Position numbers and translations under genes: made by a program. The notes under the pieces are model-generated. The model was not told the DNA's origin, searched no databases, and was given only the letters and a program-made list of their open reading frames with translations. Below are positions 20,725 through 24,146 of a stretch of 35,911 nucleotides of DNA, in pieces; the first letter of the stretch is position 1; each line of letters starts with the position of its first letter. The DNA comes from Elusimicrobiota bacterium (lineage in GTDB: Bacteria > Elusimicrobiota > Elusimicrobia > Elusimicrobiales > Elusimicrobiaceae), in assembly GCA_031262415.1 (NCBI GenBank), contig JAISHT010000058.1, forward strand, positions 1 through 35,911. The letters are read 5' to 3'.

Positions 20725-21477
20725 ATGAAAAAGAAAGCTAAAGCTTTAGTTGTTAGAACAGCGGGCATAAATTGCGATATTGAAACAAAACTTGCGCTAG
20801 AAAAAGCAGGCGCAGTAGCCGAGCTTATTCATACTAATGAAATAACTTCAGGCAAAACAAAAATATTAAATTATGATATTTTAATTTTCCCCGGCGGATT
20901 TTCTTACGGCGATGATATTGCCGGCGGTAAAATATGGTCTGTTCATATTGATAAGGTTTACGCAGATGTAAAAAAGTTTATTGATTCTGGCCGCCCGGTT
21001 ATGGGTATTTGCAATGGCTTTCAAGTTTTAACAAAACTTGGTTTCTTGCCAGAAAGTAAAGATAAAAAACAAACCGCAAGTTTAACTTTTAACGATAGCG
21101 GCGTCTTTATAGATAAATGGGTGGAGCTTAAAGTTAATAAAAACAGCCCGTGTATCTTTACTAAAAATCTTAACGACATTATAGAATTGCCCATAGCCCA
21201 CGGCGAAGGCAAAATAGTTATTGACGATAAAACAGTTTTAGAAGAGCTCAAAAAAAATAATTATATCCCGCTTACTTATGTAGATAATCCAAACGGCAGC
21301 GTGCTTGATATTGCCGGCGTTTGCAATAAACGGGGCAATTGTTTTGGCCTTATGCCTCACCCCGAGCGTTATGCAAGCCCGCTTCATCACCCGTCTTGGA
21401 CAAGGCCGCAAATGCAAAAAGTAAAAGCCGCAGGCCTAGAGTTCTTTAAAAATGCGGTAGAGTATTTAAAAGATTAA
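20725..21477 (+). CDS. purQ: Phosphoribosylformylglycinamidine synthase glutaminase subunit PurQ
   Basis: FPGGFSYGDDIAGGKIW, GICNGFQVL nucleophile, GLMPHPERYASP. Start set at Met 20725 with SD gggag. Confidence 0.95.
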   Translation: MKKKAKALVVRTAGINCDIETKLALEKAGAVAELIHTNEITSGKTKILNYDILIFPGGFSYGDDIAGGKIWSVHIDKVYADVKKFIDSGRPVMGICNGFQVLTKLGFLPESKDKKQTASLTFNDSGVFIDKWVELKVNKNSPCIFTKNLNDIIELPIAHGEGKIVIDDKTVLEELKKNNYIPLTYVDNPNGSVLDIAGVCNKRGNCFGLMPHPERYASPLHHPSWTRPQMQKVKAAGLEFFKNAVEYLKD

Positions 21478-21513
21478 AAAATAATTTACTTGTAATATAT
21501 AAACGGAGGATAT

Positions 21514-22890
21514 GTGGGCGGTATAATAGGCATACAAGGCAAAAAAAATGCGGCGGAGTTAACGCAAATTGGCTTGTTCTCGCTTCAACATCGTGGGCAA
21601 GAATCTTGCGGAATAGCGGCCTATGACGCAAAGGCAAAAATATTTAATGCGCATAAAAGCAGCGGTTTAGTTTCGCACGCTTTCCCGGCCGATATTTTAG
21701 CCCAGCTTCAAGGGCAAAGCGCTATTGGCCATGTTCGCTACCCAACCTCAGGCGCAAAGTTTGGATTGCAAGACGCTCAGCCATTTGTCTTTCGCTCGCT
21801 TCTTGGCGATATTGCCATTGCTTTAAGCGGCAATATTATTAATGTTGAGCCTCTGCTAGAAAAAATGCGCAAAAGGGGCGCAATACTTCAACACTCTTCA
21901 GAAACAGAGCTTATTATCCATCTAATTGCTCAAGAACGTAGCGGCTTTGAGCCCGCTATAAAAAAAGCTTTGCGGCAAATAGAAGGCGGCTTTAGCGCAG
22001 TTATGTTGTTTGGCGATAAATTAATAGCTTTCCGTGATCCAAACGGAATTCGTCCCCTAGTGCTTGGCAAAAAAGATAATACTTATATGGTTTCCTCCGA
22101 AACCGCCGCAATAGAAGTTATGGGCGGCAAGTATCTGCGTGATATTAAACCTGCCGAGCTGATAATAATTGAAGACGGCAAACTTAAAACAAGTTTTTAT
22201 ACAAAGCCCGCAAAAACGCATAATTGTATTTTTGAGCAGGTTTATCTCTCCCGTCCCGATTCTGTTATTCGTGGGCATTCTGTAGCAGATGCTCGTATGG
22301 AAATGGGCAAAAAGTTAGCCCGTCAAATGCAAGGCATAAAGGCTGATTTAGTTATGCCTGTGCCCGATTCTGGCATTTTTGCCGCCTTAGGTTTTGCAAA
22401 AGAATCAGGCTTACCTTTTGAAATGGGACTGGTTAGAAATCACTATATGGGCCGCTCTTTCTTAAAAAGCGTGCAAAATATGCGCGAGCAAGTTGTAAGG
22501 CTGAAACTTCTGCCAATTTTTGATATTGTGCGCGGCAAAGATATTATTTTAGTGGACGATTCCTTAGTGCGTGGCACAACGGCTAAACAGCTTATTAAAA
22601 TTTTAAAGGAACACGGCGCGCGTAAAGTGCATTTTGCCGTTACCAGCCCGCCAATTGTCGCCCCGTGCTTTTACGGTATAAATACGCCAAGCCAAAAAGA
22701 ACTTATTGCTTGCACTCACACCCATGAGCAAATTAAAGAAGAGCTTGGCGTTGAAACTATGACTTTTATTACGCAGGAAAATGCCGCAGTAGCTTGCGGC
22801 GCAAAAGAAGGGCCCGCTGGATATTGCAACTCTTGCTTTACGGGTAAATATATAAGTAAAATTTCAAAAGAAACTATGGATAAAAGATGA
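21514..22890 (+). CDS. purF: Amidophosphoribosyltransferase PurF (Fe-S type, glutaminase nucleophile apparently missing)
   Basis: LQHRGQESCGIAAYD, GHVRYPTSG, ILVDDSLVRGTTAKQLI; GTG start after SD ggagga; N-terminus reads MGGIIGI. Confidence 0.93.
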   Translation: MGGIIGIQGKKNAAELTQIGLFSLQHRGQESCGIAAYDAKAKIFNAHKSSGLVSHAFPADILAQLQGQSAIGHVRYPTSGAKFGLQDAQPFVFRSLLGDIAIALSGNIINVEPLLEKMRKRGAILQHSSETELIIHLIAQERSGFEPAIKKALRQIEGGFSAVMLFGDKLIAFRDPNGIRPLVLGKKDNTYMVSSETAAIEVMGGKYLRDIKPAELIIIEDGKLKTSFYTKPAKTHNCIFEQVYLSRPDSVIRGHSVADARMEMGKKLARQMQGIKADLVMPVPDSGIFAALGFAKESGLPFEMGLVRNHYMGRSFLKSVQNMREQVVRLKLLPIFDIVRGKDIILVDDSLVRGTTAKQLIKILKEHGARKVHFAVTSPPIVAPCFYGINTPSQKELIACTHTHEQIKEELGVETMTFITQENAAVACGAKEGPAGYCNSCFTGKYISKISKETMDKR

Positions 22891-24146
22891 AGATACTTGT
22901 TATAGGCACAGCAGGCAGAGAGCACGCTTTAGCGTGGAAATTAGCACAAAGCCCAAAGGCTACGCTAGTTTACACTTCTGTTATGGCGGCGGCCTCACTA
23001 GAGCAGGGCGGAAAAATAAAATTTAACCCTGCCGATATTAGCACAAACGATAAAGTTATTGCTTTTTGCCAAGCAGAGGCAATTGACCTTGTTGTAATAG
23101 GGCCCGAGGCTCCTCTTGCAGCGGGGCTAGCGGACGCTTTACGCCAAGTTGGCATAAAAGTTTTTGGCGCAGTTAAAGCGGGAGCAATGCTTGAGTCTTC
23201 AAAAGAATATTCCAAAAAATTTATGGATAAATATTTTATCCCAACAGCGGCCTATAAAAGTTTTACCGACGCAGACGAGGCTTTAAAATATATTGAAACT
23301 TTAACCCCGCCAATTGTAATTAAGGCCGATGGACTGGCCGCAGGCAAAGGCGTTAATATTTGCCTTAGCAAAGAAAATGCCGCAAAAACTATAAACGATT
23401 TTATGGTGGAAGGAGTGTTTGGCGGCAGCGGCAGTAAAGTTGTTGTGGAAGAATTCCTTGAAGGCCGTGAGGCCAGCATAATAGCTTTTATTGACGGCGA
23501 TACTTACAAAACTATGCCTGTTAGCCGCGACCATAAAAGACTGCTGGACGGCGACCTTGGCCCGAACACCGGCGGCATGGGCGTATACTCGCCCGTTTTG
23601 GATATAACAGAAGAAGATATTGATTTTATAAGAGAGCATGTTTTTGATAAAGCCATAAAAGGCCTTAAAGCCGAGGGCGTGGATTATTGCGGCATTTTAT
23701 ACGCCGGCATAATGAAAGGCCCCAAAGGCATTAATGTGCTTGAGTTTAATGCAAGATCCGGCGACCCTGAAACTCAGGCTATTTTACCGCTCTTAGAGCA
23801 GGATTTGCTTGAGCTTATTTTGGCTTGCGTAAATAAAAATCTAAAAGATTTTGCCCTGTCAGCTATTAATAAAACTTCTGTTTGCATTACTTTGGCGGGG
23901 CGAGATTACCCCGTTAGCGGCAGTAAGGGGCTAGAAATTACTGGTCTAGACAAAGTGCAAGACGTTTTAGTCTTCCACGCTGGAACCAAGTTAGAAAATG
24001 GTAAAACATATACAAACGGCGGCCGTGTTTTAAGCGTGGTTGCCTTGGGCGAAAACTTGGCCGATGCTCGCCAAAAAGCCTACGCAGAAATTGCAAAAAT
24101 TAATTTTGACGGTATGCAATATCGCCGTGATATAGGAGAAGAATAA
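22887..24146 (+). CDS. purD: Phosphoribosylamine-glycine ligase
   Basis: AGREHALAWKLAQSP, IKADGLAAGKGV, GPNTGGMGVYSP, FNARSGDPETQ. Confidence 0.95.
   Translation: MKILVIGTAGREHALAWKLAQSPKATLVYTSVMAAASLEQGGKIKFNPADISTNDKVIAFCQAEAIDLVVIGPEAPLAAGLADALRQVGIKVFGAVKAGAMLESSKEYSKKFMDKYFIPTAAYKSFTDADEALKYIETLTPPIVIKADGLAAGKGVNICLSKENAAKTINDFMVEGVFGGSGSKVVVEEFLEGREASIIAFIDGDTYKTMPVSRDHKRLLDGDLGPNTGGMGVYSPVLDITEEDIDFIREHVFDKAIKGLKAEGVDYCGILYAGIMKGPKGINVLEFNARSGDPETQAILPLLEQDLLELILACVNKNLKDFALSAINKTSVCITLAGRDYPVSGSKGLEITGLDKVQDVLVFHAGTKLENGKTYTNGGRVLSVVALGENLADARQKAYAEIAKINFDGMQYRRDIGEE

What the first reader, a model, noticed from the sequence alone, without database searches (positions are those of the whole stretch)
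21514..21903. PurF lacks the glutaminase nucleophile: MCGI replaced by MGGI, with further damage at the oxyanion hole and Gln-binding motif
Seen: the frame starts GTG GGC GGT ATA ATA GGC ATA (MGGIIGI). An in-frame stop lies at 21493-21495 and there is no other ATG/GTG/TTG between, so a propeptide or alternative start cannot supply a Cys. One T>G change (TGC to GGC) from canonical MCGIIGI explains it. Two other glutaminase motifs also deviate: the AHNGN segment (Asn101/Gly102 oxyanion hole in E. coli PurF) reads ALSGN at 21820-21834, and the S-D-(S/T)-E segment (Asp127) reads SETE near 21901. The PRTase half is largely intact (VDDSLVRGTT) and the four Cys expected to bind the [4Fe-4S] cluster of B. 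subtilis-type PurF appear present (CIFEQV, APCFYG, YCNSCFTGKY). Inference: a full-length PurF that has lost glutamine hydrolysis and may use free ammonia, or take ammonia from a partner. Multiple independent changes argue against a simple sequencing error.
Basis: partly seen in the sequence, partly recalled or inferred. Interest (0 to 1): 0.85.

Follow-up and report, generated by a model that had tools for sequence, protein, structure and literature searches.

The report
Glutaminase-dead PurF paralogue in Elusimicrobiaceae
A group of gut bacteria keeps, inside its purine-making operon, a first-step enzyme (PurF) whose glutamine-splitting half is conserved but lacks its catalytic residues, so the cells probably start purines from free ammonia; archaea have a comparable Cys-less PurF that was described in 2011 and, as far as I found, never tested.

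Summary
The 458-aa PurF at 21514-22890 has Gly for the catalytic Cys1, ALSGN for AHNGN and SETE for SDTE, and no upstream start supplies a Cys. It is not an error or a decaying gene. Seven species in two genera of Elusimicrobiaceae carry the same protein ('PurF-v'). At five positions that are otherwise essentially invariant (C1, N83, H101, N102, D127; 112-113 of 113 canonical PurFs) all seven have the same changed residue. PurF-v is monophyletic (100/100), under strong purifying selection (dN/dS about 0.08; its GATase half about 0.10), and absent from the rest of 345 phylum genomes. The PRTase half is largely canonical. PurF-v occupies the ancestral purL-purQ-purF-purD position. A second PurF with the Cys lies elsewhere in four of these seven genomes, but in the window's own genome it carries an in-frame stop, and it was not found in three others (64-88% complete).

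Best reading: an ammonia-dependent PRPP aminotransferase with a retained, repurposed pseudo-glutaminase domain, analogous to human CPS1. Ammonia use is inferred from E. coli Cys1 mutants and not shown here. The closest known case is crenarchaeal PurF' (Brown 2011); this is an independent bacterial origin.

The parts
21514..22890 (+). purF-v: full-length PurF with an inactive-looking glutaminase domain, 458 aa, GTG start
   Evidence: TIGR01134 434 bits, cut-off 350; phmmer to B. subtilis PurF 1ao0 E=4e-121; AF2 model pLDDT 86.8, pTM 0.86, best PDB matches are PurF, TM about 0.9
21517..21519 (+). GGC (Gly2) at the position of the catalytic N-terminal Cys1
   Evidence: Gly in 7/7 orthologues, Cys in 113/113 canonical PurFs
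21772..21774 (+). GAC (Asp87) at the invariant Asn83 of canonical PurF
   Evidence: Asp 7/7 versus Asn 113/113
21820..21834 (+). ALSGN in place of AHNGN (His and oxyanion-hole Asn replaced by Leu-Ser)
   Evidence: Leu 7/7 versus His 112/113; Ser 7/7 versus Asn 113/113
21901..21903 (+). GAA (Glu130) at the glutamine-binding Asp127
   Evidence: Glu 7/7 versus Asp 113/113
22552..22581 (+). PRPP-binding loop VDDSLVRGTT of the PRTase domain, intact
   Evidence: alignments
22225..22227 (+). Cys238, first presumed [4Fe-4S] ligand; the others are at 22666-22668, 22825-22827 and 22834-22836
   Evidence: Cys at these aligned columns in A1 and aligned with B. subtilis 1ao0
22459..22503 (+). PRTase flexible loop region; the conserved Pro (B. 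subtilis 316) is Ser in this protein and Ser/Asn/Thr in all orthologues
   Evidence: canonical Pro 111/112, v S/S/S/S/N/T/S; low pLDDT at 309-319
21505..21509 (+). ribosome-binding site GGAGG of purF-v
   Evidence: sequence
20725..21477 (+). purQ directly upstream, glutaminase Cys motif GICNGF intact
   Evidence: TIGR01737 198 bits; motif
22887..24146 (+). purD directly downstream
   Evidence: TIGR00877 494 bits
16044..27731 (+). purine operon folD-purC-purS-purL-purQ-purF-v-purD-purE-purM-purN-purH
   Evidence: family hits; purS and gene order

Best explanation
PurF-v is an ammonia-dependent PRPP aminotransferase. The PRTase half makes 5-phosphoribosylamine from PRPP and NH3. The N-terminal GATase half has lost glutamine hydrolysis and is kept as a structural, regulatory or ammonia-entry domain with a remodelled pocket. 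It arose by duplication of purF in an ancestor of Elusimicrobium and its sister genus. The copy at the ancestral operon site became glutamine-independent; a Cys-containing copy (PurF-c) lies elsewhere and is patchy or sometimes broken. Shown: loss of the catalytic residues, selection, phylogeny, synteny. Inferred: the ammonia-dependent activity and the role of the dead domain.
For: Substitutions at five (near-)invariant positions in and around the glutaminase site are fixed in 7/7 orthologues, while no PRTase position has so clean a swap; the nearest, D387N, is shared by PurF-c of the same genome. v is monophyletic at 100/100, with v and c sisters at 100/99. dN/dS 0.084 overall, 0.104 GATase, 0.066 PRTase; purL 0.062, purQ 0.094 in the same genome pair. 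Ancestral gene order purL-purQ-purF-purD across the class. PRPP loop and aligned Fe-S ligands kept; PurF fold predicted. In the window genome PurF-c carries an in-frame TAA, and PurF-c is not found in G023, G025 or G016, nor at the carAB site of G018 in the first two, so v may be the only full-length PurF there. E. coli PurF Cys1 to Ala/Ser loses glutamine use but keeps ammonia use (Mei and Zalkin 1989, as cited in PMC3261824). Human CPS1 is the precedent for an ammonia enzyme with a dead glutaminase domain (PMC4655335).
Against: No activity was measured. The PRTase has some lineage changes (P316S/N/T in the flexible loop, D387N, T353Q in two orthologues), so altered chemistry is possible. PurF-c is intact in the finished genome G018 and in G009 and G015, so v need not be the sole enzyme. 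The three genomes without PurF-c are 64-88% complete, and the TAA in G000 PurF-c could be an assembly error. A pocket that had merely become useless would be expected to drift, but its changed residues are invariant, which suggests a positive role that plain ammonia use does not explain.
Confidence: 0.55

Rival explanations
1. PurF-v is a pseudo-subunit: it assembles with PurF-c into mixed oligomers and tunes or stabilises the glutamine-dependent enzyme (regulatory paralogue), with little activity of its own.
For: Both paralogues coexist and are full-length in G009, G015 and the finished genome G018. The PurF fold and the GATase domain are conserved. The fixed pocket residues suggest a retained binding or contact role. 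PurF enzymes are homo-oligomers (established knowledge).
Against: PurF-c is not detected in three v-bearing genomes and is interrupted in the window genome. PRTase catalytic motifs are kept, which a pure pseudo-subunit would not need. v, not c, sits in the pur operon.
Confidence: 0.2
2. PurF-v receives ammonia from another glutaminase (PurF-c or the neighbouring PurQ) by protein-protein channelling rather than from solution.
For: purQ is the adjacent upstream gene in the v loci where the upstream side is held, and its Cys is intact in the window. PurF-c is present in four of the genomes.
Against: purQ-purF adjacency is the ancestral order with canonical PurF too, so it is not evidence of a new link. 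PurQ acts within the PurSLQ complex (PMC10912719).
Confidence: 0.1
3. PurF-v is neofunctionalised: the rebuilt pocket binds another ligand, or the PRTase uses another amine or acceptor, for a reaction other than PRA synthesis.
For: Pocket residues are not drifting but fixed to G, D, L, S and E in 7/7; there are lineage changes in the PRTase loops (P316, T353Q).
Against: Position inside a complete IMP operon; in the genomes checked, v-bearing ones have purL and v is absent from those of the family without purL; mostly conserved PRTase.
Confidence: 0.12
4. Sequencing or assembly artefact, or a pseudogene in decay.
For: Only that the window is a draft contig (135 contigs, 88.9% complete).
Against: Same five residues in seven independent assemblies including a single-contig genome; dN/dS about 0.08; open frames throughout.
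Confidence: 0.01

Closest known systems
Crenarchaeal PurF' (Brown et al. 2011, Biol Direct 6:63, PMC3261824)
   Same: A second PurF-like protein that lacks the N-terminal Cys, conserved across a clade, clustered with purine genes, alongside a Cys-bearing PurF; ammonia-dependent activity was proposed there and left untested.
   Different: PurF' has often Ala or Val and lies near purF; here it is Gly, in bacteria, nested beside its own family's PurF (independent origin), with the Cys-bearing copy unlinked. Whether PurF' also changes N83/H101/N102/D127 could not be checked.
Methanocorpusculum labreanum Mlab_0150 (PMC3261824)
   Same: PurF duplicate with the nucleophile replaced (Ser).
   Different: Described as a relatively recent duplicate in one species; here an old duplicate under strong selection in seven species.
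Canonical PurF of B. subtilis type (1ao0/1gph)
   Same: Full length, PRTase motifs, positions of the four Fe-S cysteines, fold.
   Different: Catalytic Cys, oxyanion Asn and Gln-binding Asp replaced.
Human carbamoyl phosphate synthetase I (PMC4655335)
   Same: Amidotransferase that keeps an inactive glutaminase domain and uses free ammonia; works-like comparison only.
   Different: Glutaminase domain of a different class (Cys-His-Glu triad) and a different synthase; not a homologous system.

Membership tests
Amidophosphoribosyltransferase PurF (TIGR01134, EC 2.4.2.14) | whole-protein match above the curated cut-off | tested here: met
   434 bits against 350
Amidophosphoribosyltransferase PurF (TIGR01134, EC 2.4.2.14) | N-terminal catalytic Cys for glutamine hydrolysis | tested here: not met
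   Gly in all seven; no upstream Cys start
Amidophosphoribosyltransferase PurF (TIGR01134, EC 2.4.2.14) | oxyanion-hole Asn and Gln-binding Asp | tested here: not met
   N102S, D127E in 7/7
Amidophosphoribosyltransferase PurF (TIGR01134, EC 2.4.2.14) | PRPP-binding PRTase loop | tested here: met
   VDDSLVRGTT; T353Q in two orthologues only
Amidophosphoribosyltransferase PurF (TIGR01134, EC 2.4.2.14) | glutamine-dependent PRA formation | not testable with these tools
   needs an assay
PurF' (Cys-less PurF paralogue) | PurF homologue without the Cys nucleophile, conserved as a clade | tested here: met
   v clade of 7, support 100/100
PurF' (Cys-less PurF paralogue) | coexists with a Cys-bearing PurF in the same genome | tested here: inconclusive
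   yes in G000 (with in-frame stop), G009, G015, G018; not found in G016, G023, G025
PurF' (Cys-less PurF paralogue) | shares ancestry with the crenarchaeal PurF' clade | not tested
   no crenarchaeal sequence was in hand; v nests with the PurF of its own family, which argues for independent origin
Ammonia-dependent PRPP aminotransferase | NH3-dependent, glutamine-independent activity | not testable with these tools
   inferred from E. coli Cys1 mutants cited in PMC3261824

The most novel reading that the evidence does not exclude
In a lineage of gut bacteria the main, operon-encoded entry into purine synthesis has switched from glutamine to free ammonia by converting the glutaminase half of PurF into a new conserved pocket that acts as an allosteric sensor or ammonia port, with the old glutamine enzyme becoming dispensable and being lost in some members.
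Probability: 0.3. Interest if true: 0.75.

Novelty: new variant of a known kind. Interest (0 to 1): 0.6.

Why it matters
De novo purine synthesis is taken to begin with a glutamine-dependent step. A conserved, selected PurF without glutaminase residues would be a natural counterpart of the E. coli Cys1 mutants and of human CPS1. It would answer, in bacteria with a cultured representative, the question left open for crenarchaeal PurF' since 2011. It also warns that annotation pipelines call this protein amidophosphoribosyltransferase above cut-off although it cannot be expected to use glutamine.

Tried and rejected
Sequencing error or pseudogene: rejected by seven orthologues and dN/dS. Alternative upstream start or propeptide supplying Cys, as happened for three archaeal PurFs in PMC3261824: rejected in all seven, stops lie close upstream and there is no Cys. 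General loss of glutaminases in these genomes: rejected for those looked at; GlmS and PurQ of G000 and CarA of G018/G025 keep their Cys motifs. Synteny of PurF-c: none, it sits in different places, and its tree joins G018 with G000 against the v tree, so c may have moved horizontally. G020 purF is a C-terminal fragment at a contig end; its class stays unknown, although it keeps the canonical Pro316 and Asp387. Literature: no paper on Elusimicrobium and purF was found, and no later work on PurF' in the library; the E. minutum genome paper is not held. The second structure job and two fold searches were not used.

Full report
What is there. The window is a contig (C129) of a 1.23 Mb draft genome, 88.9% complete. 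Relatives place it in a family whose single-contig member G018 has 1,643,562 bases; from my own knowledge that is the size of Elusimicrobium minutum Pei191, and the contig of G025 is deposited as 'Elusimicrobia bacterium Lab288P4bin46', so the family is taken to be Elusimicrobiaceae. The window holds a complete purine operon, folD-purC-purS-purL-purQ-purF-purD-purE-purM-purN-purH, followed by pyrimidine genes. The purF frame 21514-22890 begins GTG GGC GGT ATA ATA GGC, with GGAGG upstream and an in-frame stop at 21493-21495.

It is a conserved subfamily. Among 60 relatives, seven genomes of two genera have this form, called v here. All seven begin MGG[VI]IG and have ALSGN and HSSETE. Against 113 canonical PurFs from the class and other phyla, the positions where v is invariant and different while the canonical residue is at least 99% conserved are exactly five: C1>G, N83>D, H101>L, N102>S, D127>E (B. 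subtilis numbering). From established knowledge, Cys1 is the nucleophile, the Asn of AHNGN forms the oxyanion hole and Asp127 binds the glutamine amino group. The glutamine-carboxylate Arg and the following Thr are kept. In the PRTase half the PRPP loop and the cysteines aligned with the B. subtilis Fe-S ligands stay; the changes there are P316>S/N/T in the flexible loop, D387>N (also in the window genome's own canonical copy), F243 and A244 (the latter also Ser in two canonical copies of the family), and T353>Q in two orthologues.

History. v is monophyletic at 100/100, the Cys-bearing PurFs of the same family (c) are monophyletic at 100/100, and v and c are sisters at 100/99, next to the PurFs of the sister family. 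So purF was duplicated within this family and one copy lost its nucleophile. Across the class the single canonical purF, where its neighbours are on the locus, commonly sits between purQ and purD. v sits in that place in the genomes where the flanks are held, whereas c lies elsewhere: next to carAB in G018, pgm-eno in G000. The glutaminase was therefore lost by the copy in the ancestral position. v was found in 7 of 90 family genomes and 7 of 345 phylum genomes, with profile scores of 277-295 bits against 163-173 for c. Most of the family shows no PurF at all, and the five family genomes without PurF that were checked also have no PurL.

It is selected. Between G023 and G025, where synonymous sites are not yet saturated, dN/dS of v is 0.084; the GATase half gives 0.104 and the PRTase half 0.066, against 0.062 for purL and 0.094 for purQ of the same genomes. 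Tree lengths over four species are 1.27 (GATase) and 0.97 (PRTase) for v, and 1.17 and 1.08 for c: a slightly looser but still constrained GATase domain. The AlphaFold2 model has pLDDT 86.8 and pTM 0.86, and its best solved matches are B. subtilis, Arabidopsis and E. coli PurF at TM of about 0.9.

Is v the only PurF in some cells? In the window genome, c (C30:426-1811) has intact catalytic residues but an in-frame TAA at C30:1389-1391 before the PRPP loop. c was not found in G023, G025 and G016 (88, 66 and 64% complete), and the site beside carAB where G018 has c holds other genes in G023 and G025. This favours v working alone, but draft genomes cannot prove absence, and the TAA cannot be checked against reads here.

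Mechanism. E. coli PurF with Cys1 replaced by Ala or Ser loses glutamine use but still accepts ammonia (Mei and Zalkin 1989, as reported in PMC3261824). v keeps the PRTase machinery and lacks the nucleophile, so ammonia-dependent PRA synthesis is the simplest function; this is inference. Human CPS1 shows that an enzyme can keep an inactive glutaminase domain and take ammonia from solution (PMC4655335). What the plain model does not explain is why the changed pocket residues are fixed rather than drifting; a ligand site, an ammonia port or a contact with another protein are open. Rivals are a pseudo-subunit of PurF-c, ammonia supply by a partner, and a changed reaction.

Known or new. Brown et al. 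2011 (PMC3261824) described PurF' in Crenarchaeota: Cys-less PurF paralogues near purine genes, with ammonia-dependent activity proposed and not tested, and a Ser variant in Methanocorpusculum. The Elusimicrobiaceae case works like that, but arose independently within its own family's PurF, changes at least five active-site positions, and holds the ancestral operon position. No paper connecting Elusimicrobium and purF was found in the library searched. Verdict: real, selected, a new bacterial variant of a known but unsolved kind.

Noticed in passing
L004 (G000:C30) 426-1811, stop at 1389-1391: Second purF of the window genome, catalytic residues intact, but one in-frame TAA splits it before the PRPP loop; recent nonsense change or assembly error.
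   Followed up: partly
L043 2608-3920 and 6348-6908; L044 4188-4751, 7198-7761, 7846-8607; L037 6505-7107; L039 1067-2143; L167 5088-6634: Small genes, most with signal-peptide-like or membrane-protein N-termini, are inserted between pur genes (purS-purL, purL-purQ, or after purQ) in relatives; different ones in different genomes, while the window operon has none.
   Followed up: no
L043 and L044 purF-v, PRPP loop: The PRPP loop reads VDDSIVRGTQ (Thr353 to Gln) in these two orthologues only.
   Followed up: no
PurF-c of G018 and G000 (L038, L004): PurF-c of G018 groups with that of G000 (100/99) against the v phylogeny, and its neighbourhood differs between genomes; possible horizontal movement of purF-c.
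   Followed up: partly
family-wide: Most Elusimicrobiaceae genomes show no PurF match, and the five checked have no PurL either, so de novo purine synthesis seems lost in most of the family and kept in a few species.
   Followed up: partly
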